Of a stretch of DNA of 64,000 nt, positions 22,337 to 33,014 are shown piece by piece. Both the position numbers and the translations under genes were made by a program. Origin of the DNA: Cyanobium sp. Morenito 9A2. GTDB lineage: Bacteria > Cyanobacteriota > Cyanobacteriia > PCC-6307 > Cyanobiaceae. How positions within the stretch are numbered: position 1 is the stretch's first letter; every line of letters starts with the position of its first letter. The stretch lies in assembly GCF_024345575.1 (NCBI RefSeq), contig NZ_JAGQBJ010000001.1:310001-374000 (forward strand). The letters run 5' to 3'. The notes under the pieces are model-generated. The model was given only the letters and a program-made list of their open reading frames with translations, was not told where the DNA came from and did no database searches.

Positions 22337-22488
22337 TGGCATGAACGGAGCACCCAAGGTTGGTCTCCTCCCCCCACCCCTTGACTTAAACGGCCGTAAG
22401 GACCTGGGTTCTTGAGGACGGGAACAGCGATTCGTTGCCATGGCGGCTGGCCCACAGCGCCCATGGGACGGGATTGCTCCAGCGCGTC

Positions 22489-25380
22489 ATGGACGGTAGG
22501 CCTTGTCCTGCGGCGCCCCCTTGGAAGGGCGAGGGTGATGAATCCCGGTCCCCTTCCGCTGGAGCGGAACCAACGCACCCATCCAATAGCTTGGCGCCAG
22601 CTGAGACCCATGCGTTGAACGCTGCCGCCCCCGGGAGACCCTGGCATGCTCTGGCACCGGCAGCGTGCCTCCAATCACTTGGGGCCAGCACCGACGGTCT
22701 GAGCACGGCCCAAGGCGCCGAACGCCTGGCCAGGCTGGGGCTCAACCGGCTGGAGTTGAAGGCCGGGCGCAGCAACCTGCGCATCCTCTGGGATCAGTTC
22801 AGCAACGTGATGCTGATCATGCTGCTGGGGGTGGCGGCGGCCTCGGCAGGGGTGGCCTATGCCGCCCAGCGCTTCCCCAAGGATGCGCTCGCCATCGTGC
22901 TGATCGTCGGCCTCAACGCCCTGCTCGGCTACCTGCAGGAAAGCCGCGCCCAGCAGGCACTCCAGGCCCTGCGCGCCATGGCCCAACCCCTGGTGACGGT
23001 GCGCCGTGACGGGATCTGGGAACGGCTCTCCAGCGAGAAGCTGGTGCCGGGCGACCTGATCCGGGTGGAAGCCGGTGATCGGGTGCCCGCCGATGCCCGT
23101 CTGCTGGAGGTGGCTGAACTGGGTCTGCGGGAGGCGGCGCTCACCGGCGAGGCCGAGGCCGTGACCAAGCAGGCCGTTCTGGTGCTTGATCCGGCCACTC
23201 CGGTGCTGGAGCGCAGGAACTGTCTCTTTCAGGGCACTGAGGTGGTGCGTGGCCGCGGCCTGGCGGTGGTCACGGCCACGGGCATGGAGACGGAGCTTGG
23301 CAAGATCGCCCAACTCATCAACACCGCTGGCGGCGAGTCGACGCCTCTCCAGGACCGGCTCGATGGCCTGGCCAACGTGCTGGTGGCCTCAGCCCTGGCC
23401 CTGGTGGCTGCGGTGGTGCTGCTGGGCTGGCTGATGGGTCAGCGGCTGCTGGATCTGCTGGAGGTGGCCCTGTCGATGGCGGTGGCGATCGTGCCCGAGG
23501 GCTTGCCGGCGGTGATCACCGTCACCCTGGCGATCGGCACCCAGCGGATGGTGCAACGGGCCGCCCTGATCCGCCGCCTGCCGGCGGTGGAGGCCCTCGG
23601 CTCAGTCACGGTGATCTGCACCGACAAGACCGGCACCTTGACCCTCAATCGCCAGGTGGTGCAGGAGCTGCGCAGCGGCACTCGCTCCCTGGCCGTCAGT
23701 GGCCACGGCTATGACCCCCGTGGCGGCTTCACATCCACCGCGCTCCCGCCGCCCAACGGCGCCAGGACCGGCGTGGCCCCCGGTGCCAGCGACCTGCTGC
23801 TGCAGGCGGGGGTGCTCTGCAGCGACGCCGAACTGAAGCAGGAGCCCGACGGCCGCTGGGAGATCCTCGGTGATCCGACTGAAGGGGCCTTGGTGGTGGC
23901 CGCCGCCAAGGCTGACCTCGATGGCTTCGCCCTGCGCAGCCATTACAGGCGGGAGGCCGAGATTCCCTTCAGCTCGGAGCGTCAGCTGATGGCCGTCTGG
24001 GTGCAGGACCTCCAGGGCAGCCTGCAGGCCCCCCTCGGGGAATGCGCCGCCGGTTCCTTCACCCTGTTGATCAGCAAAGGGGCTCCCGAGGTCATCCTCC
24101 TCACCTGTGATCGCTGGCTCGATGGCTCCGGCGTGGCGGCCCTCCGTGAGGACCAGCGTCAGTGGTGGCTGGAGCAAGCCCGCAGCCTCGCCGCCTCCGG
24201 CCTGCGGGTGCTCGCCTTTGCCTGCGCTCCCCATCACTCCAGCCCGGAGCAGGCCCTCGACCACCAGGTGCTGCTGGGGCTGATGGCCCAGCTGGATCCC
24301 GCCCGCCCGGAAGTTGCCGTTGCGGTGGCCCGCTGCCGGGAAGCCGGCATCCGGCCGGTGATGATCACCGGCGATCACCCCCTCACGGCCCGCGCCATCG
24401 GCGTCACGATCGGCCTGGTGGACGAGGGTGCCGAGGTGGTGCTCGGAAAGCAGCTGGAGGACGCCGACTCCAGCACCCTCGCCGCGATCGTCGGCCGCTG
24501 CAACGTCTACGCGAGGGTTACCCCCGAACAGAAGCTGCGCATCGTCAAGGCCCTGCAGGGGCTGGGTCAGGTGGTCGCGATGACGGGGGATGGCGTCAAC
24601 GACGCCCCGGCCCTCAAACAGGCCCACATCGGCGTGGCCATGGGCATCACCGGCACGGAGGTGAGCAAGGAGGCCTCCGACATGGTGCTGCTCGACGACA
24701 ACTTCGCCACGATCGTCAACGCGGTGGAGCAGGGCCGGCTGGTGTACGCCAACATCCGCCGCTTCATCAAGTACATCCTCGGCAGCAACGTGGGGGAACT
24801 GATCACGATCGCCTCGGCGCCCCTGTTGGGTCTGGCCGGTGTGCCGATGACGCCGCTGCAGATCCTCTGGATGAATCTGGTCACCGATGGGGTGCCCGCC
24901 CTTGCCCTCGCCCTGGAGCCCGGAGAGGCCGGGCTGATGCAGCGCCCGCCCGCAGAGCCCGGGGAATCGATCTTTGCCCGGGGCGTGGGCCGCTACATCC
25001 TGCGCATCGGTGTGGTGTTCGCTGCGATCACGATCACGATGATGGTCTACGCCTCCAGTGTCGGCGCCCCCTGGAAGACGATGGTCTTCACCATGCTCTG
25101 CCTGGCCCAGATGGGCCATGCCCTGGCGGCGCGCAGCGACCGGCCCCTGGTGCAGGTGGCCCCCCTCTCCAACCCCTGGCTGCTCTGGGCCGTGGTCCTC
25201 ACCACCGTTTTGCAGCTGGCTCTGCTCTACGTTCCCGTGCTGGCACGCTTCTTCGGAACGGTGCCTCTCTCCGCTCCCGATCTGGCCATCTGCGTGGGCT
25301 TCAGTCTCCTGTTCTTCCTTTACCTGGAACTCGAGAAGGTGTGGCGCCTCTGGCGCCGCAGCCTCCGCGCCGATACCTGA
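22489..25380 (+). CDS. P2-type cation-transporting ATPase (PacL/Ca2+-like)
   Basis: A P-type ATPase of about 960 residues with a cation-ATPase N-terminal domain ([16 protein letters not shown]), actuator TGEAEAV, helix-4 motif [10 protein letters not shown] typical of P2A calcium pumps, phosphorylation motif [11 protein letters not shown] (Asp about 379) and hinge [15 protein letters not shown]. The C-terminal six helices include [19 protein letters not shown]. PacL-like pumps export Ca2+, or Mn2+ in some cases; specificity is inferred. The start is uncertain: ATG 22489 is given, but TTG codons at 22591 or 22615 would start nearer the N-terminal domain. A DedA gene follows 43 bases downstream. 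Confidence 0.9.
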
Positions 25381-25423
25381 GGCTTCCTGGCCTGGTTCTC
25401 CCCTCCGCCCTTTAGACCTGGCG

Positions 25424-26089
25424 ATGCCACCACTCGATCTTCAGGGTTTCGTTGCCGCCCTCCCGGATGTGCTCCTCAAGGCGGTGGAGACCAATCCTTT
25501 GCTGGGTTACGGGGTCATCGCGCTGGTGATGTTGCTGGAGAACGTGGTTCCACCGATTCCTTCGGAAGTGGTGATGCCCCTGGCTGGTTTCCTGGTGCAG
25601 CAGGGCAAGCTTGAACTGGTGCCCGTCATGCTCGCCGGACTGCTGGGTACGGTCCTGGGCGCCTGGTTCTGGTACGGCGTGGGCCGCCTCATCAATGAGG
25701 AGCATCTTGAGCACTGGGTGGCGCGCCACGGCCGTTGGCTGGGGGTCCATCCCGAAGCCCTGGCCACCAGCCGCCGCTGGTTCAACCGCCATGGTGTCGC
25801 GGTCGTCTTCTGGGGCCGGGTGGTGCCTGGGGTGCGCACCCTGGTGTCGGTGCCGGCGGGCATGGAGCTGATGCCGCAGCGCACATTCCTGCTCTGGACC
25901 ACGGCGGGAAGCGCTCTCTGGCTCTTGTTCCTGCTGGTGGCGGGCCAGGCTTTGGGGGAGGGTTACAAGCAGATCGCCCTCTGGATCGAGCCGATCGCGC
26001 AGGTGATGATCTGGGTTGTGGTGGCGGCCCTTGGTGTGGTCCTGGCCTGGGTGGCGATCAAGGCCATTCAGCGGCTGCTGCGGGACTGA
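25424..26089 (+). CDS. DedA-family membrane protein
   Basis: A 221-residue integral membrane protein of the DedA/SNARE-associated (VTT) family. It shows the family motif around ENVVPPIPSEVVMPLAGF in the first half and the conserved R-x-x-P-G-x-R pattern (WGRVVPGVRTLVSVPAG) in the second. DedA proteins are thought to be lipid (undecaprenyl phosphate or phospholipid) transporters that need the proton gradient. The start at ATG 25424 follows the ATPase stop by 43 bases, so the two may share a transcript. A second DedA protein is at 55076. The gene ends facing the convergent HdeD-like gene. Confidence 0.92.
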   Translation: MPPLDLQGFVAALPDVLLKAVETNPLLGYGVIALVMLLENVVPPIPSEVVMPLAGFLVQQGKLELVPVMLAGLLGTVLGAWFWYGVGRLINEEHLEHWVARHGRWLGVHPEALATSRRWFNRHGVAVVFWGRVVPGVRTLVSVPAGMELMPQRTFLLWTTAGSALWLLFLLVAGQALGEGYKQIALWIEPIAQVMIWVVVAALGVVLAWVAIKAIQRLLRD

Positions 26090-26128: not shown

Positions 26129-26638
26129 TCAAGCGGCGGGAGCTTTGGGTGCCGTGATCAGGTTGATTGCTGAGAAGAACAGGGCCACACCGAAGAGGGT
26201 GCCGATGGCCCAGAAGCTGTCGCTCGGCCATTCGGCCACCAGCATTCCTCCCAGGATGGCCGTCACGACGCCATCGACGATCACCAGCCCCCGGGCCTGG
26301 CCGGAACCAGCGGCGGCGCCGGCCAGCTCCATCACCCCTTCGAACACCAGCAGCAGGCCGGCCAGCAGCGTCAGGCTCACTTCACTGTCGACGGGGTAGG
26401 CCAGGATCCAGGCGCCGCCGGCCAGGTAGAAGAGGCCGGAGAGGCCGCGGAAGAGTTTGGCGTTCAGCTCCCCCTCGCCCGTGAGCCGCAGCAACTGGGC
26501 CACCCCGGCGGCGATCGCCACACCGCCGATGGCGATCGTCAACGCCGTTGCCGATACGAACGGCAGCAGGATCGAGAGGGCGGCGGCGATGAACAGCAGC
26601 ACCGCCGTGATCAAGCGCAGGGTGGGATTGGTGATCAT
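26129..26638 (-). CDS. HdeD-family (DUF308) membrane protein
   Basis: A 169-residue protein with six short hydrophobic helices in the repeated pattern of the HdeD/DUF308 family (LITAVLLFIAAALSILLPF, LLAGLLLVFEGVMELAG, TLFGVALFFSAINLI). HdeD protects E. coli at acid pH and high cell density; the role in cyanobacteria is not known. The chosen start, ATG 26638, gives the typical N-terminus MITNPTLRL. The frame is open far upstream but looks non-coding there. It is read alone, convergent with the DedA gene and divergent from the oxidase operon. Confidence 0.88.
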   Translation of the reverse strand: MITNPTLRLITAVLLFIAAALSILLPFVSATALTIAIGGVAIAAGVAQLLRLTGEGELNAKLFRGLSGLFYLAGGAWILAYPVDSEVSLTLLAGLLLVFEGVMELAGAAAGSGQARGLVIVDGVVTAILGGMLVAEWPSDSFWAIGTLFGVALFFSAINLITAPKAPAA

Positions 26639-26768
26639 GCGTTCGGGGGCCGAGTGAGGCAGAGGCAAGTTTAGGAGCCCCAACCGTGAAGGCTTTTGGT
26701 GACATTGGCCGAACCCCCTGCCGTTGGCCGACACACTGGAACCAAGCGCATCCAGATGGAAGCGGTCC

Positions 26769-27266
26769 ATGCTCGAGCTGCTTCCAGCCCTCAACGACCG
26801 CAACCTGCCCTGGCCGGACACTCTGCACCCGATCGTGGTGCACTTCGTGATCGCCTCGGCCCTGCTGGTGGTCGTGTTCGATCTGATTGCCTTGGTCGCC
26901 AGGAAGCCGGCGCTGCTGGAGGTGAGCTTCTGGAACCTGCTGGTGGCCACGGCCACGATTTTTGTGGCGATCATCGTCGGCCAGGTGGAGGCGGGTCTGG
27001 CCAACCCCTACGGAGCCTCGCGCGAACTGCTCAACCAGCACACCACCCTGGGCTGGGCCCTGGCCGGGGTGCTCTCCGTGCTCACGGCCTGGCGCTACGT
27101 GATCCGGCTCCGTGATCCCCAGCAGCTCCCCCTAGCCTTTCTGGGTGCCGGTGCGCTCCTGGGTGCCCTGGTGGTGGTGCAGGTGGTGCTGGGGGACCGG
27201 CTGATCTGGGTCTACGGCCTGCACACGGTGCCGGTGGTCGATGCCCTGCGCCGGGGGCTGGTCTGA
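26769..27266 (+). CDS. DUF2231 membrane protein, first of pair in oxidase operon
   Basis: A 165-residue protein with four transmembrane helices and the DUF2231 features: an early LHPIVVHFVIASALL, where two histidines sit at the start of helix 1, and later NQHTTLGWALAG. Histidines in these places suggest cofactor or heme binding, but this is not shown. I chose ATG 26769 (MLELLPALNDR) over the ATG 45 bases upstream because the upstream codons look non-coding. Its stop overlaps the next DUF2231 gene by one base. Paired DUF2231 genes ahead of ctaC suggest a helper or electron-transfer role for the oxidase. Confidence 0.85.
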   Translation: MLELLPALNDRNLPWPDTLHPIVVHFVIASALLVVVFDLIALVARKPALLEVSFWNLLVATATIFVAIIVGQVEAGLANPYGASRELLNQHTTLGWALAGVLSVLTAWRYVIRLRDPQQLPLAFLGAGALLGALVVVQVVLGDRLIWVYGLHTVPVVDALRRGLV

Positions 27267-27853
27267 TGAATCCCGAGCTGGCCTTCGGCGCCAATGGCTT
27301 GCCCTACGGCCTGCCGATTCACCCCAACCTCGTGCACCTGAGCATCGGTCTGTATGCGGTGGCGATCGGCTTCGACACCATTGGCGCCCTCTACCCGCTT
27401 GAGAAGCGGGTCTTCCGCTTTTTGGCGCTGCCCGTCACCCGTTCCGGTTTCCACGATGTGGGCTGGTACAACCTGCTGGCCAGCGCCCTGCTCAGCTTCC
27501 TCACGGTGGCCAGCGGTTTCTACGAGATGTTGCTGGCCGATCCGCTGGAGGGTGTGCTCAGTGCCTTTGGCCTCGGCAGCCAGGTGACGATGCTCTGGCA
27601 CGGGGTGGGTGGGGTGGCCCTGCTGCTGTTGCTGGTGTTGATGGCGATCTGGCGGGGCTACCAACGCTTTGCCTGGCGCAAGGACATGGGCCGCCAGGTG
27701 CAGTGGAGCTACCTCTTGGCGGGCGTCTCGATCGCCGTCTTGATGGGGGTGCACGGCACCCTTGGGGCCCAGCTGGCCGGGGAGTTTGGCGTGCACATCA
27801 CGGCGGCTCAATTGCTCGCTTCCGGGGCTGATCTGCGGGAGGCGTTGCCATGA
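27266..27853 (+). CDS. DUF2231 membrane protein, second of pair
   Basis: A 195-residue, four-helix DUF2231 protein, distantly related to its upstream neighbour. It shows the same histidine placement (LPIHPNLVHLSIGLYAV at helix 1, TMLWHGVGGVALLLL at helix 3) and an extra conserved YNLLASALLSF. It overlaps ctaC by ATGA, so translation is coupled to the oxidase subunit. A function in assembly of, or electron delivery to, the oxidase is inferred from the operon. No signal peptide is seen; the N-terminus MNPELAFGANG is short and polar. Confidence 0.85.
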   Translation: MNPELAFGANGLPYGLPIHPNLVHLSIGLYAVAIGFDTIGALYPLEKRVFRFLALPVTRSGFHDVGWYNLLASALLSFLTVASGFYEMLLADPLEGVLSAFGLGSQVTMLWHGVGGVALLLLLVLMAIWRGYQRFAWRKDMGRQVQWSYLLAGVSIAVLMGVHGTLGAQLAGEFGVHITAAQLLASGADLREALP

Positions 27854-28773
27854 TCCGCTTCGTACTGCTCAGCGCCTGGATCGGCCTGCTGGTGGTGGCC
27901 AGCCACTGGATGGGGCAGGAGGCCTACCGCTGGTTCCCCGTGCAGGCCTCCAATGCCGCGCCGCTGGTGGATGACCTGTTCAGCCTCGAGACCGCCATTG
28001 GCACGTTTGTGTTTCTGGGGGTGCTTTCGGTGCTGCTCTGGGTGCTGCTGTTCAACCGCGCCGAGAAGTACGACCAGGAGGATGGCCCACCGATGGAGGG
28101 CAACACGCGGCTGGAGATCGTCTGGACGGTGATTCCACTGGTGATCGTCATGGCCATCGCCGTGGTCAGCATCCGCGTGAACCGCGAGCTCGGGGTGCTC
28201 GGCCCCATGGAGCACGTGCACGGAGGCGAGCTGATCGAGGCGATGGACCATGGCCCTGGGGCTTCCGCTGCGGGATCGGGTTCGCTTCAAGTCGATGTGA
28301 TTGCCCGCCAGTGGTCGTGGGAGTTCCGCTACCCCGGCGCCCAGGTTTCGGCCACCGAGTTGCACCTGCCGCTTGATGTTCCGGTCACGTTCAAGCTCAC
28401 CTCCCCGGATGTGCTGCACGGCTTCTACGTGCCCGCCTTCCGGCTCAAGCAAGACGTGGTCCCCGGCCGGGCGATCGATTTTTCGCTGACCCCCACCCGA
28501 AGCGGCCGCTACCGGCTGCGGGATTCCCAGTTCAGCGGCGCCTGGTTCGCCGCCAACCAGGCCGATGTCGTGGTCGAGTCGCCTGAGGCGTTCGGCTCCT
28601 GGCTGGAGGCGGCCAGCCACCAGCCCCTGCAGCCGGGCCTGAGCGTGGCCGCCGACGAGGCCGAACGGCTCGCGCGCCAGCCGGCGGGCGGCATCCGCTG
28701 GGCCACGGTGCCCCCCGCCCCGCCTCCTTTGGTCAACGTGCCTGGCTCCAATTCCCTCCCCCACGACGCCTGA
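27850..28773 (+). CDS. ctaC: terminal oxidase subunit II lacking the CuA site (ARTO type)
   Basis: A 307-residue subunit II of a heme-copper oxidase with two N-terminal membrane helices (about residues 45-70 and 90-110) and a periplasmic cupredoxin domain (about 145-245). The domain is clear (IARQWSWEFRYPG, VLHGFYVPAFRLKQDVVPG), but the CuA loop that normally reads C-A-E-L-C-G-x-x-H is here RDSQFSGAWFAANQ. Both copper-binding cysteines and the later His and Met are missing. This is the known mark of the cyanobacterial alternative respiratory terminal oxidase (ARTO, CtaCII), which probably takes electrons from quinol rather than cytochrome c. Confidence 0.93.
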   Translation: MIRFVLLSAWIGLLVVASHWMGQEAYRWFPVQASNAAPLVDDLFSLETAIGTFVFLGVLSVLLWVLLFNRAEKYDQEDGPPMEGNTRLEIVWTVIPLVIVMAIAVVSIRVNRELGVLGPMEHVHGGELIEAMDHGPGASAAGSGSLQVDVIARQWSWEFRYPGAQVSATELHLPLDVPVTFKLTSPDVLHGFYVPAFRLKQDVVPGRAIDFSLTPTRSGRYRLRDSQFSGAWFAANQADVVVESPEAFGSWLEAASHQPLQPGLSVAADEAERLARQPAGGIRWATVPPAPPPLVNVPGSNSLPHDA

Positions 28774-28776
28774 GCG

Positions 28777-30468
28777 ATGACCGTTCTCACCCCCACCAGC
28801 CCCAGCCCTTCTCCACCGAAGTCATCGCCGCCTACCTGGTTGCGGTATTTCAGCTTCTGCACCGATGCCAAGGTGATCGGCATCCAGTACGTGGTGCTGT
28901 CGTTTGTCTTTTTCTTGATCGGTGGCTTTCTGGCGATGGTGATGCGGGGGGAACTGCTCACCCCGGCGGCTGATCTGGTGGATCGCACGGTCTACAACGG
29001 GCTGTACACCATGCACGGCACGATCATGTTGTTCCTGTTCACCTTTCCGGTGCTGAACGGGTTCAACAACCTGCTGATCCCGGTGATGATCGGCGCCCCG
29101 GATATGGCCTTCCCGCGCCTCAATGCGCTGGCATTCTGGATGTTTCCTGTCTTCGGTCTGGTGCTGATCGCCAGTTTCTTTGTTCCCGGCGGACCGGCCT
29201 CGGCGGGGTGGTGGTCGTACCCGCCCATCAGCGTCCAGAACCCCTTGGGCCATCTGATCAACGGTGAATCCCTCTGGATCCTTGCTGTGGCCCTCTCGGG
29301 CATTTCTTCGATCCTGGGTGCGCTCAATTTCGTGACCACGATCCTGCGCATGCGGGCCCCGGGGATGGGCCTGTTCCGCATGCCGATCTTCTGCTGGACG
29401 GCCTTGGCGGCCCAGACGATCCAGCTGATCGGCCTTCCGGCGCTCACGGGCGGCGCCGTGATGCTGCTGCTCGATCTCACCGTGGGCACCACGTTCTACG
29501 ACCCGACCGGCGGTGGTGATCCGGTGCTCTATCAGCACTTCTTCTGGTTCTATTCGCACCCGGCGGTGTACGTGATCATCCTGCCCGTGTTCGGCATCTT
29601 CTCGGAGCTGTTTCCCGTCTATGCCCGAAAGCCGCTGTTCGGCTATCCCTTTGTGGCGATCGCCTCGTTCGTGATCGTGGGCCTGGGGCTGATCGTGTGG
29701 GTGCACCACATGTTTCCCAGTGGCGTGAGCCAGTGGATGCGCGATCTGTTCATGGTCACCACGATGCTGATCGCCGTGCCCACCGGCGTGAAGGTGTTCG
29801 CCTGGCTGGGCACCCTCTGGGGGGGAAAGCTGAAGCTCACCACTCCCATGCTGTTTGCCCTCGGCGGTCTGATCAACTTCGTGTTCGCGGGCATCACCGG
29901 CATCATGCTGGCTACGGTCCCGATTGACATCCACGTCAACAACACCTACTTCGTGGTGGGCCATTTCCACTACGTGATCTATGGCGCCGCCGTGATGGGA
30001 ATCTTCGCGGCCATCTACCACTGGTTCCCCAAGTTCACCGGCCGCATGCCCTACGAGGGTCTCGGCAAGCTCCACTGCCTGCTCACGTTTGTGGGAGCCA
30101 ATCTCAACTTCCTGCCCATGCACCCCCTCGGGCTGATGGGCATGCCGAGGCGGGTGTCCTCCTACGACCCGGAGTTCGCGTTCTGGAACGTGCTCGCCAG
30201 CCTCGGAGCCTTTCTGCTGGGGGTCTCGATCATCCCCTTCCTGCTCAACATGGTCAGTTCGGTCGTGCGTGGCGAGCCGGCGGGCGCGAATCCCTGGCGG
30301 GCGATCGGCCTGGAGTGGCTGTTGCCCTCGCCGCCACCGATCGAGAATTTCGAAGACCACGTGCCCACGGTGATCAGCGCGCCCTACGGCTATGGCACGG
30401 GCAAGCCCCTGGTGGAGCACCAGGGGGAGATTGAGCTTGCCCTGGCGCTTCTTGAGGGAAGGGCATGA
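28777..30468 (+). CDS. ctaD: heme-copper oxidase subunit I, A2 type
   Basis: A 563-residue, 12-helix catalytic subunit that reduces O2 at a heme/CuB centre. Visible features: low-spin heme His in TMHGTIMLF, the CuB His and cross-linked Tyr in FYSHPAVYVIILP, the CuB pair in WVHHMF, and heme His residues in VGHFHYVIYG. The sequence YSHPAVY in place of HPEVY marks the A2 subtype, where Tyr-Ser replaces the Glu of the D-channel. It lies three bases after ctaC and overlaps ctaE by ATGA. In ARTO-type complexes this subunit pumps or consumes protons at the cytoplasmic membrane. Confidence 0.96.
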   Translation: MTVLTPTSPSPSPPKSSPPTWLRYFSFCTDAKVIGIQYVVLSFVFFLIGGFLAMVMRGELLTPAADLVDRTVYNGLYTMHGTIMLFLFTFPVLNGFNNLLIPVMIGAPDMAFPRLNALAFWMFPVFGLVLIASFFVPGGPASAGWWSYPPISVQNPLGHLINGESLWILAVALSGISSILGALNFVTTILRMRAPGMGLFRMPIFCWTALAAQTIQLIGLPALTGGAVMLLLDLTVGTTFYDPTGGGDPVLYQHFFWFYSHPAVYVIILPVFGIFSELFPVYARKPLFGYPFVAIASFVIVGLGLIVWVHHMFPSGVSQWMRDLFMVTTMLIAVPTGVKVFAWLGTLWGGKLKLTTPMLFALGGLINFVFAGITGIMLATVPIDIHVNNTYFVVGHFHYVIYGAAVMGIFAAIYHWFPKFTGRMPYEGLGKLHCLLTFVGANLNFLPMHPLGLMGMPRRVSSYDPEFAFWNVLASLGAFLLGVSIIPFLLNMVSSVVRGEPAGANPWRAIGLEWLLPSPPPIENFEDHVPTVISAPYGYGTGKPLVEHQGEIELALALLEGRA

Positions 30469-31076
30469 GCACCTCAAGCCCCCTCGACCCCTCGGCCGCG
30501 CCCGATCCGGCCGCCCACGGCGAGCACGGGGGGCATCCCAATTTCACGCTCACGGGTTTCGTGATCTTTCTGCTTTCAGAGAGCGTGATCTTTCTGGCGT
30601 TCTTCAGTGGCTACACCGCCCTGAAGCTCAGCGCCACCGCTTGGTTGCCCTCCGGTGTGGAGGGCCTGGAGTGGCAGACCCCTCTGATCAATTCGGTGGT
30701 CCTGGTGTCGAGTTCCGGCACAATCGCTCTGGCCGAGTGGTTCAAGCACCGCGGCTCCCTCTGGGGCTTCCGCGCCTTCTGGCTGCTCACCATGGCCATG
30801 GGGGCCTACTTCCTGCTTGGCCAGGCGCAGGAATGGCGTTCCCTCAGCTTCGGTTTCACCGATGGCACCTTTGGCGGCACCTTCTATCTGCTCACCGGGT
30901 TCCACGGCCTGCATGTGGCCACCGGCATCCTGTTGATGGCGCTGATGCTGCTCAAGTCGTTTCTCCCGGGCAACTACGACGGCGGCGAGCAGGGGGTGGT
31001 GGCCACGTCCCTGTTCTGGCATTTCGTCGATGTGATCTGGATCCTGCTGTTTCTGCTGCTTTACGTGTGGCGTTAG
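30465..31076 (+). CDS. ctaE: heme-copper oxidase subunit III
   Basis: A 203-residue, five-helix subunit III (short form without the first two helices of mitochondrial COX3). Typical sequences: LLSESVIFLAFFSGY, GTFYLLTGFHGLHVATGILLM and SLFWHFVDVIWILLFLLLYVWR. The N-terminal 30 residues carry an acidic, His-containing stretch (AHGEHGGHP). It supports the stability and proton uptake of subunit I. It ends the oxidase genes; the GMC oxidoreductase starts 10 bases downstream and is probably read with them. Confidence 0.95.
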   Translation: MSTSSPLDPSAAPDPAAHGEHGGHPNFTLTGFVIFLLSESVIFLAFFSGYTALKLSATAWLPSGVEGLEWQTPLINSVVLVSSSGTIALAEWFKHRGSLWGFRAFWLLTMAMGAYFLLGQAQEWRSLSFGFTDGTFGGTFYLLTGFHGLHVATGILLMALMLLKSFLPGNYDGGEQGVVATSLFWHFVDVIWILLFLLLYVWR

Positions 31077-31086
31077 GAGTCCTGCC

Positions 31087-32601
31087 GTGATCATCGACGA
31101 CCACACCTATGACCTGATCGTGATCGGCACCGGTGCCGGGGGCGGCACCCTGGCCGGCGCTCTTGCCGAGTGCGGCAAGAGCGTGTTGGTGCTGGAGCGG
31201 GGTGGGGCCATGGATCTCAGCGATCAGAACGTGGCGGATGTGGAGCTGGTTCGCAACAGCCGCTACCACCCCGGCGAGCAGTGGTTCGGCACCGACGGCG
31301 ATCCGTTCCCACCCCAGATGATCTATGCCCTGGGGGGCAACAGCAAGATCTGGGGCGGGGTCCTTGAGCGTCTGCGCGAGCAGGACTTCGCCCCCCAAAG
31401 GCACCTCGATGGCTCCAGCCCCGGTTGGGAGCTGAGCTACGCCGATCTCGCCCCCCACTACGACCGGGCCGAGCGCTTGTACCACGTGCACGGTCGCCGC
31501 AGCGTCGACCCCACCGAGCCACCGCGCACGGGTGACTACCTGCATCCCCCCCGGAGCATCGAGCCGGTCCTGGAGAGCCTGCGCGCCGACCTGGCCCGCC
31601 AGGGTGTCACCGCCTACGACCTGCCGATCAGCTGGTCCGCGTCGCCGCTGGATCCGAGCGGCGATGCCGAGCGTTTCGGGGTGGATGTGGCGGAGCTATC
31701 CGCCCAGGTGACGTTGCGCACGGGTGCCCGGGTGATACGTCTGCACGTCAACCCCAGTGGCCGCGAGGTGAAGGGGGTGCAGGCGGAGATCGATGGTCAG
31801 AACTGGCTGTTCACCGGCCACGTGGTGGTGCTGGCTGCCGGCGCCGTCAACAGCGCCGCCCTGCTGCTGCGCTCCTGCAATGACCAGCATCCCGAGGGCC
31901 TCGCCAACGGCTCGGGCCAGGTGGGCCGCAATCTGATGAAGCCCCAGCTCTCCTCCATCCTGCAGCTGGCCGCCCATCCCGATTCAGGGCGTTACGGCCC
32001 TGGTCTGGGGATCAACGACTACTACTGGGGCGACAAGAACGTGTCGGTGCCGCTGGGGCAGATCCGCAACGGTGGTGGTGTGCTTCAGGACCCCCTGTTC
32101 GCCGAATCGCCCCCCCTGCTGTCCCTGGTCACTCGGCTGTTGCCCAACAGCCTGCTGGAGCAGTTGGCCGTGCGCACGGTCAGCTGGTGGGCGAGCAGCG
32201 GCGTTCGGCCTGATCCCGCCAACCGCGTCAGCCTGCGCGGCGAAGGACTGCAGATCACCTACACCCCCAACAACCGTGAGGCCCACGACCGCCTCGTCTA
32301 CCGCTGGCTCTCCACGATCAAGGCGCTTGAAGCCGACCCCGCCACCACGGTGGTGCGCGCTTTCCCCCTCCATCCCCGTGGCGAGTCGCCCCTGGCGGTC
32401 CTGGGGTTCGCCTGCGGCACTGTCCGCATGGGCAGCGATCCTACCCGATCCGTGGTGGACCTCCAGGGGAGGAGCCATCAGCTCGTCAACCTCTACGTGG
32501 CTGACGCCAGCGTCTTTCCGACCTGCCCTGCCGTGGGCCCGGCGCTCACGGTCATTGCCCTGGCCCTGCGGCTGGCGGAACATCTCAAGCGAGTGCTATA
32601 G
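31087..32601 (+). CDS. GMC-family FAD oxidoreductase
   Basis: A 504-residue glucose-methanol-choline oxidoreductase. N-terminal FAD motif VIGTGAGGGTLAGALAE and acidic VLERGG. A substrate region follows, then the C-terminal GMC signature CGTVRMGSDP, VADASVFPTCPAVGP and LTVIALALRLAEHL. No signal peptide or membrane helix is seen. It starts at GTG 10 bases after ctaE, in an operon-like position. That suggests it could feed electrons from an alcohol or sugar into the quinone pool used by the oxidase, but the partner and substrate are unproved. No typical transcription terminator was seen after it. Confidence 0.88.
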   Translation: MIIDDHTYDLIVIGTGAGGGTLAGALAECGKSVLVLERGGAMDLSDQNVADVELVRNSRYHPGEQWFGTDGDPFPPQMIYALGGNSKIWGGVLERLREQDFAPQRHLDGSSPGWELSYADLAPHYDRAERLYHVHGRRSVDPTEPPRTGDYLHPPRSIEPVLESLRADLARQGVTAYDLPISWSASPLDPSGDAERFGVDVAELSAQVTLRTGARVIRLHVNPSGREVKGVQAEIDGQNWLFTGHVVVLAAGAVNSAALLLRSCNDQHPEGLANGSGQVGRNLMKPQLSSILQLAAHPDSGRYGPGLGINDYYWGDKNVSVPLGQIRNGGGVLQDPLFAESPPLLSLVTRLLPNSLLEQLAVRTVSWWASSGVRPDPANRVSLRGEGLQITYTPNNREAHDRLVYRWLSTIKALEADPATTVVRAFPLHPRGESPLAVLGFACGTVRMGSDPTRSVVDLQGRSHQLVNLYVADASVFPTCPAVGPALTVIALALRLAEHLKRVL

Positions 32602-33014
32602 AGCCCCTGATCGTGCCGTTCCTGGGGGCGCTCAGGCAGGCCCGACAGCCGCCGGCGGTTGAAGCGTTGCTCCAGCAGGCAGGCATGGTTCAGGGGGCGA
32701 CGAAGGCCAGGGCGAAGGCCACGGCCCGAGGCAGCAGCGCCTGGCGCTTCGTTGCCCCGGGACTGCTAGGTCCACTGGCAGGTGTCCCCTCCAGGGGCGG
32801 ATACCGAGCACCCTCTGGCCCCACTGGAGAGCGTCGATGCAGGGCAGCGGCCCATCGTGGCTGGTGGGGCCGGAGAGCCCACCCCGATCGGGACGTTGTC
32901 GCCCCGGCCGATCAACAGCGACCAGCCCCGCCAACCCAGGGCGCCGGCGGTGGCGATCGCAGGATCGATGGCACGAACAGGGAAGCGCCCTGACAGGCGA
33001 ACCGCGCCCTGCCC
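32602..33014. other. stretch without a supportable gene
   Basis: This stretch is GC-rich and has frames open on both strands, but none shows a family motif, start site or steady codon use. It follows the oxidase/GMC operon and precedes two decayed minus-strand genes, so it probably belongs to the same eroded block. Confidence 0.4.

What the first reader, a model, noticed from the sequence alone, without database searches (positions are those of the whole stretch)
26769..32601. ARTO-type quinol oxidase operon with two DUF2231 proteins and a GMC oxidoreductase
CtaC has no CuA ligands (RDSQFSGAWFAANQ in place of the Cys-rich loop) and CtaD has the A2-type YSHPAVY. Two DUF2231 proteins with helix-edge histidines come before, with overlapping ends. 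A GMC flavoprotein follows at 10 bases. The flanking genes may form an electron entry route into the oxidase that is not part of the textbook ARTO.
Basis: partly seen in the sequence, partly recalled or inferred. Interest (0 to 1): 0.55.

Follow-up and report, generated by a model that had tools for sequence, protein, structure and literature searches.

The report
ARTO oxidase with obligate DUF2231 pair
A cyanobacterial respiratory oxidase that lacks both known electron entry sites always travels with the same two uncharacterised membrane proteins, which may be its missing electron entry point.

Summary
In detail: DUF2231a, DUF2231b, CtaC without CuA, CtaD, CtaE and a GMC flavoprotein lie head to tail at 26769-32601, with overlaps of 1 and 4 bases and a 10-base gap before GMC. 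The two DUF2231 proteins are not incidental. In 292 cyanobacterial genomes, all 70 with ARTO have the DUFb-type protein and only 2 others do. The pair lies directly upstream in 75 of 79 ARTO loci; in three of the four exceptions it sits elsewhere in the genome. ARTO CtaD also lacks all four bo3 quinol-site residues in every row checked (72 of 72), so subunits I and II hold neither textbook entry site. In the two genomes with the pair but no ARTO, it sits between CcoN/CcoO-like oxidase genes and NDH-2. Each protein has four invariant histidines on the predicted periplasmic side. Best reading: the pair is a dedicated subunit module that supplies electron (quinol) entry. The main rival is an ARTO-specific copper or assembly factor. 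GMC recurs (30 of 71 loci) but has lost the usual catalytic His and Asn, so the alcohol/sugar route is weak. The Anabaena operon with two extra membrane proteins is already published; their role is not in the papers I searched.

The parts
26769..27266 (+). DUF2231a: 4-TM membrane protein, invariant His at residues 20, 25, 91, 152
   Evidence: PF09990 112 bits; 75-row alignment; AF2 model mean pLDDT 79.7, four long helices; positive loops on the side opposite the His in 75 of 75 rows
27266..27853 (+). DUF2231b: 4-TM membrane protein, invariant His at residues 19, 24, 112, 177, and His163 in 96%
   Evidence: PF09990 121 bits; AF2 model mean pLDDT 71.5
27850..28773 (+). CtaC (ARTO subunit II) without CuA ligands
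   Evidence: COX2_TM and COX2 domains; Cys to Asp/Ser in 80 of 80 rows
28777..30468 (+). CtaD (ARTO subunit I), A2-type; haem and CuB ligands kept, bo3 quinol-site residues absent
   Evidence: COX1 512 bits
30465..31076 (+). CtaE (subunit III)
   Evidence: COX3 107 bits
31087..32601 (+). GMC-family flavoprotein with degenerate catalytic His/Asn positions
   Evidence: GMC_oxred_C 64 bits and GMC_oxred_N 27 bits; nearest solved relatives FAD glucose and fructose dehydrogenases

Best explanation
The block encodes a five-protein oxidase, ARTO subunits I-III plus a dedicated pair of DUF2231 membrane proteins, with a GMC flavoprotein added in many lineages. Shown here: the pair and ARTO are inherited together, also where the operon is broken up, with one pair per oxidase copy in most multi-copy genomes. 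Inferred: the pair are stoichiometric subunits that hold the electron entry site missing from subunits I and II. They would oxidise plastoquinol near the periplasmic face and pass electrons, probably through haem b held by the invariant histidines, to the low-spin haem of CtaD. NDH-2 is the likely upstream reductant of the quinone pool. GMC is accessory; its role and substrate are open.
For: Presence: DUFb in 70 of 70 ARTO genomes, 2 DUFb-only, 220 neither, of 292 (not corrected for phylogeny). Order: pair upstream of CtaC in 75 of 79 loci; in G076, G080 and G093 the pair is kept at another locus. Copies: seven genomes with two complete loci carry a pair with each; distance correlations DUFa-CtaD 0.92, DUFb-CtaD 0.82, CtaC-CtaD 0.94. 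Need for an entry site: no CuA (80 of 80 rows) and no R71/D75/H98/Q101 of E. coli CyoB (0 of 72 rows at each position). Portability: in G111 and G036, without ARTO, the order is CcoN-like, CcoO-like, DUFa, DUFb, NDH-2, with the four His kept. NDH-2 lies in 15 of 79 ARTO loci, on the same strand in 8, and beside the split pair in L231 and L232. A DUF2231-Rieske fusion exists. Invariant His on one, predicted periplasmic, side. PMC6616624 says it is unclear whether these oxidases contain more subunits (passage).
Against: No cofactor or complex was shown. The AF2 models are moderate and the fold searches gave no match with E <= 0.001; four-helix bundles match many unrelated proteins. In proteobacterial plasmids single-type DUF2231 lies beside oxidases most of which keep the CuA Cys pair (4 of 5 checked) and beside CopD and CtaG-type assembly genes, which favours an assembly role. 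Gloeothece carries a pair with no oxidase gene within 7 kb. Single-type cyanobacterial DUF2231 genes lie away from oxidases in the seven loci listed. Quinol could bind subunit I elsewhere. All His lie on one side, so no transmembrane two-haem path is evident.
Confidence: 0.48

Rival explanations
1. DUF2231a/b are an ARTO-specific assembly or copper-handling factor: the periplasmic-side His cluster binds copper and helps insert CuB, and the pair is needed for biogenesis, not for turnover.
For: Proteobacterial DUF2231 genes sit beside CopD and CtaG-type genes and oxidases. Both oxidase kinds linked to the pair in cyanobacteria belong to the haem-copper superfamily and so should have CuB. A copper-binding four-helix protein gene lies near the Gloeothece pair, and a BlaI/MecI/CopY-type regulator lies near the Trichormus operon.
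Against: One pair per oxidase copy suits a subunit better than a catalyst acting in trans. The genome's own Cox1, also with CuB, lies at a locus without the pair (L229), and genomes with a Cox1-type CtaC only have no pair. Repeated NDH-2 neighbours and a Rieske fusion point to electron transfer.
Confidence: 0.28
2. ARTO takes quinol at an unrecognised site on subunits I/II, and DUF2231a/b serve another linked task, such as Fe(III) reduction in the plasma membrane, with ARTO as partner or electron sink.
For: A Synechocystis mutant lacking ctaD2/ctaE2 is reported to be impaired in iron reduction and uptake (PMC10119275, passage). The Trichormus operon lies near a TonB-dependent receptor and an MFS transporter.
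Against: In G111 and G036 the pair keeps company with a cbb3-like oxidase, not ARTO, so an iron task tied to ARTO alone does not explain it. No recurring iron-transport gene was looked for systematically.
Confidence: 0.14
3. The GMC flavoprotein is the main electron entry: it oxidises an alcohol or sugar and feeds ARTO directly or through DUF2231.
For: Same strand within 1 kb in 30 of 71 loci over 11 of 13 families; exact co-occurrence in 36 genomes of one family; nearest solved relatives are glucose and fructose dehydrogenases; in Sulfitobacter an oxidase with DUF2231 lies beside a GMC dehydrogenase set.
Against: Catalytic His position holds His in 6 of 32 rows and catalytic Asn in 1 of 32, while the paralogue on contig C20 keeps both; absent in 34 of 35 f7 loci.
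Confidence: 0.07
4. The genes stay together only by shared history, with no functional link.
For: Operons are often inherited as blocks.
Against: The pair persists when unlinked and joins another oxidase family when ARTO is absent.
Confidence: 0.03

Closest known systems
Anabaena PCC 7120 alr2729-alr2730-coxB3A3C3 (Qox, type-1 ARTO) operon
   Same: Two membrane-protein genes before the three ARTO genes, reported as one operon and co-regulated (PMC6616624, PMC3898017, PMC7065334; passages).
   Different: The role of the two genes is not stated in those passages; the window block also carries GMC. I did not fetch the 7120 sequences; the DUF2231 identity is shown in the relative Trichormus variabilis ATCC 29413.
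E. coli cytochrome bo3 (CyoABCD)
   Same: Haem-copper oxidase with CuA-less subunit II.
   Different: All four quinol-site residues R71, D75, H98, Q101 are absent from ARTO CtaD.
SoxABCD-type archaeal quinol oxidases (recalled, not fetched)
   Same: CuA-less oxidase whose quinol electrons are thought to enter through an extra b-type cytochrome subunit.
   Different: SoxC is a cytochrome b homologue (recalled); DUF2231 proteins are small 4-TM proteins of another Pfam family.
cbb3-like oxidase of Synechococcus elongatus PCC 7942 (PMC13208690, passages)
   Same: The cyanobacterial cbb3-like genes in G036 and G111 lie with a DUF2231 pair.
   Different: C-family oxidase; the paper calls its function in cyanobacteria unclear. 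That G036 is S. elongatus is my guess.
FAD-dependent glucose and fructose dehydrogenases (GMC family)
   Same: Best solved relatives of the GMC protein.
   Different: Catalytic residues not conserved; no small or cytochrome c subunit gene seen beside it in the window.

Membership tests
ARTO (type-1, CuA-less A-family oxidase) | Haem and CuB histidines and active-site Tyr in subunit I | tested here: met
   H106, H284, Y288, H333, H334, H419, H421 (CyoB numbering) conserved in 72 of 72 rows
ARTO (type-1, CuA-less A-family oxidase) | No CuA ligands in subunit II | tested here: met
   Cys to Asp/Ser in 80 of 80 rows
ARTO (type-1, CuA-less A-family oxidase) | Quinol oxidation and oxygen reduction | not testable with these tools
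   No biochemistry possible
bo3-type quinol oxidase | QH quinol-site residues R71, D75, H98, Q101 in subunit I | tested here: not met
   None of the four in any of 72 rows
DUF2231 (PF09990) | Pfam match above the curated cut-off | tested here: met
   112 and 121 bits against 26.4
b-type cytochrome (b561-like or similar) | Bis-His haem b binding | not testable with these tools
   Invariant His present; no cofactor assay
b-type cytochrome (b561-like or similar) | Shared fold with a known b-type cytochrome | tested here: inconclusive
   Only weak, tied four-helix matches
GMC oxidoreductase | FAD-binding and GMC C-terminal domains | tested here: met
   GMC_oxred_C 64.3 and GMC_oxred_N 27.2 bits, both above cut-off
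GMC oxidoreductase | Catalytic His and His/Asn pair | tested here: not met
   His at 441 in 6 of 32, Asn at 484 in 1 of 32; neither in the window protein. The position of the pair was read from fructose and glucose dehydrogenase alignments and recalled GMC motifs
CtaG/Cox11-type oxidase assembly factor | Sequence membership | tested here: not met
   No such Pfam match at E <= 0.1 for DUFa or DUFb; a similar role is not excluded

The most novel reading that the evidence does not exclude
A DUF2231 pair is a portable electron-entry module: a small haem- or metal-binding quinol dehydrogenase unit that can be joined to haem-copper oxidases of different families (A-type ARTO and a cbb3-like C-type), and so makes quinol oxidases out of enzymes that have no donor site of their own. 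ARTO would then be a five-subunit enzyme.
Probability: 0.38. Interest if true: 0.85.

Novelty: new variant of a known kind. Interest (0 to 1): 0.62.

Why it matters
ARTO is described as a three-subunit plastoquinol oxidase, yet a review calls it unclear whether it has more subunits (PMC6616624), and this work finds neither known donor site in subunits I and II. Naming two obligate partner proteins turns a long-standing question (how electrons reach ARTO, and how ARTO affects iron reduction) into a simple genetic and biochemical test, and gives a first functional hypothesis for DUF2231, a family that appears almost nowhere in the papers searched.

Tried and rejected
Structure: AF2 models of DUFa and DUFb from 36 and 41 sequences. 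Foldseek gave no match with E <= 0.001. VIA-align rows were led by cytochrome oxidase subunit III and designed four-helix bundles at Z about 11-14, within the range the tool warns is common for helical bundles, so I draw no homology from them. A profile search of solved structures with DUFb found nothing better than E 0.34.

'DUF2231 marks CuA-less oxidases in general': rejected, since 4 of 5 proteobacterial oxidase subunits II beside DUF2231 keep the C-x3-C pair (the fifth, Paracoccus alcaliphilus, lacks it).

'Cyanobacterial single DUF2231 genes are also oxidase partners': not supported in the seven loci listed, nor by blast with the six window proteins in the single-type loci.

Promoter/terminator scan of 26500-33000: no sigma-70-like site; terminator-like sites 7 against 4.5 expected; uninformative.

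GMC plus oxidase in cyanobacteria: no paper held all three terms.

Counts and dropped rows: the 200-bit line for 'ARTO-like' CtaC was my choice at the gap between 202 and 181 bits. Two sub-threshold ARTO-like places (G101:C94, G060:C15 near 259 kb) were not counted; both have the pair upstream. The strict script count gave 74 rather than 75 of 79 because one stop-to-stop CtaC frame (L072) starts before DUFb. The 80 genome-contig loci were found with DUFb, so DUFb there is by construction. The 15 named single-type DUF2231 plasmid loci opened were picked by me, partly for their annotation, so their mix is not a frequency.
Full report
What is there. The window is from a cyanobacterium of the Synechococcus/Cyanobium kind (nearest named loci; the genome itself is unnamed). 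At 26769-32601, + strand, six genes lie head to tail: DUF2231a, DUF2231b, CtaC, CtaD, CtaE, GMC. Overlaps of 1 base (DUFa/DUFb), 4 bases (DUFb/CtaC) and 4 bases (CtaD/CtaE), and gaps of 3 bases (CtaC/CtaD) and 10 bases (CtaE/GMC), suit one transcript; transcription itself was not tested.

Oxidase core. The haem and CuB histidines and the active-site Tyr are kept in all 72 CtaD rows, which are 71 loci plus the window again, and Ala stands at the E286 position in all of them. Both CuA cysteines are replaced, by Asp and Ser, in all 80 CtaC rows (79 loci plus the window). When ARTO CtaD is aligned with E. coli CyoB, the four residues of its quinol site (R71, D75, H98, Q101; their role is recalled) are absent from every row: Val/Ile/Phe/Leu, Phe/Leu/Met, Val/Leu/Phe and Gly/Ala/Ser/Val stand there. 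So the electron entry points known for A-type oxidases, CuA and the bo3 quinol site, are both missing. This is an argument from absence; an unrecognised quinol site stays possible.

The pair is obligate. A CtaC search of 292 cyanobacterial genomes gave 79 ARTO-like matches (over 200 bits) in 70 genomes. In 75 of these 79 loci DUFa and DUFb lie directly upstream in the same order and strand. Three of the four exceptions (G076, G080, G093) keep the pair elsewhere in the genome; the fourth (L135) is an extra oxidase copy in G060. A DUFb profile search of the same 292 genomes found 72, namely all 70 ARTO genomes plus G036 and G111; 220 have neither (Fisher p 6.7e-66, not corrected for kinship). 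In the window's own family, 14 of 36 sampled genomes have ARTO, DUFb and full-length GMC, and the other 22 have none of the three. In 80 further named loci found with DUFb, DUFa is present in all, and the six-gene block in 74; the other 6 run off contig ends.

Copies and co-variation. Seven genomes have two complete ARTO loci, each with its own pair, and the copies have diverged together; distance correlations are 0.92 (DUFa-CtaD), 0.82 (DUFb-CtaD; 0 of 999 permutations reach it) and 0.94 (CtaC-CtaD). This fits subunits better than a factor acting in trans, though shared descent of an operon gives part of it.

The two exceptions are the most telling. G111 and G036 have the pair but no ARTO. 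There the order is CcoN-like, CcoO-like, DUFa, DUFb (with a C-terminal extension), NDH-2. Pfam gives COX1, FixO, DUF2231 and Pyr_redox_2 (the NDH-2 name is mine, from family and length). NCBIfam matches to ccoN (263 and 204 bits, cut-off 583) and ccoO (94 and 79 bits, cut-off 201) are below the curated cut-offs, so cbb3-like is the safe word. The four His of each protein are kept. NDH-2 is also found within 15 of the 79 ARTO loci, on the same strand in 8, and next to the unlinked pair in L231 and L232. A quinone-reducing enzyme beside the pair suits quinol as donor.

Anatomy of the pair. AF2 gives four long helices for each. Invariant His lie at the starts of helices 1 and 3 and after helix 4, all on one side; Lys and Arg are more frequent on the other side in 75 of 75 rows for each protein, so by the positive-inside rule the His face the periplasm or lumen. 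That is the side on which bo3 oxidases handle quinol and to which the low-spin haem lies nearer (recalled). Whether the His bind haem b, another metal or quinol is open.

DUF2231 elsewhere. Among 15 named plasmid loci with single-type DUF2231 that I opened (not a random sample), 8 have oxidase genes beside it, usually with CopD and CtaG-type genes; 3 have a glucose/sorbosone dehydrogenase directly after it, and Sulfitobacter has a GMC dehydrogenase set nearby. In Kitasatospora DUF2231 is fused to a Rieske domain. These point to respiration, but CopD and CtaG also favour copper handling, and most of those oxidases keep CuA. In Gloeothece a pair has no oxidase gene within 7 kb.

GMC. It recurs on the same strand within 1 kb of CtaE in 30 of 71 loci, in 11 of 13 families, but in 1 of 35 loci of f7. 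In Trichormus variabilis plasmid A the six-gene block is followed by a cytochrome bd subunit I gene. The nearest solved proteins are FAD glucose and fructose dehydrogenases, but the catalytic His/Asn positions are not conserved, whereas the paralogue on contig C20 keeps both. An ordinary alcohol or sugar dehydrogenase is therefore unlikely; a changed chemistry or a structural role is possible.

Literature. The Anabaena operon alr2729-alr2730-coxB3-coxA3-coxC3 is in print, bound by NtcA and co-regulated (PMC6616624, PMC3898017, PMC7065334, passages; sigma-factor data in PMC4390870, passages). [quoted passage not shown] ARTO is linked to iron reduction (PMC10119275, passage). In the library searched, DUF2231 or PF09990 occurs in two papers and COG4244 in none (listings only), and none joins GMC oxidoreductase, terminal oxidase and cyanobacteria. 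Subscription papers are mostly outside this library, so novelty claims are limited to it.

Verdict. That the pair is a dedicated ARTO partner is well supported (my estimate 0.9). That it is the electron entry module is the best single reading (0.48), ahead of an assembly or copper role (0.28).

Noticed in passing
L249:1008-6132 (+) and L250:5081-10157 (-): Atypical cyanobacterial cbb3-like oxidase (CcoN-like, CcoO-like with a FixS-like C-terminal segment) in one block with a DUF2231 pair and NDH-2; DUFb carries a C-terminal extension of about 100 residues.
   Followed up: partly
L222 (Trichormus variabilis ATCC 29413 plasmid A): ARTO six-gene block between a BlaI/CopY-type regulator with M56 peptidase plus MFS and TonB receptor genes on one side and a cytochrome bd subunit I gene on the other.
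   Followed up: partly
L144:12897-16564 and other genome-contig loci: Downstream of GMC many relatives carry a long protein that I take for a GH63-type glucosidase (homologue in 48 of 80 loci; family name recalled) and a second GMC gene; the window shows neither here, and a similar GMC lies on contig C20 of its genome.
   Followed up: partly
L223 (Gloeothece verrucosa PCC 7822 plasmid): DUF2231 pair without oxidase genes, after SDR and VOC genes and near a copper-binding four-helix protein and a Rieske protein; SDR and VOC relatives also lie near ARTO in other genomes.
   Followed up: partly
L251, L253, L254, L256, L273, L274, L275: Proteobacterial plasmids: DUF2231 divergent from a coxB-ctaD unit and next to or overlapping a CopD gene, often with a CtaG-type gene: a recurring oxidase island.
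   Followed up: partly
L270:2800-3720: DUF2231 fused to a Rieske domain in Kitasatospora.
   Followed up: partly
window 22435-26086: P-type cation ATPase and a DedA/UptA-like gene upstream; not conserved next to ARTO (1 of 79 loci, the window itself).
   Followed up: no
window 26132-26638 (-): HdeD-like DUF308 gene divergent from the operon; a relative lies near ARTO in 28 of 80 Synechococcaceae loci.
   Followed up: no
L102 (G167:C7): Third ARTO copy in one genome whose CtaD matches only as a short fragment, so probably broken.
   Followed up: no
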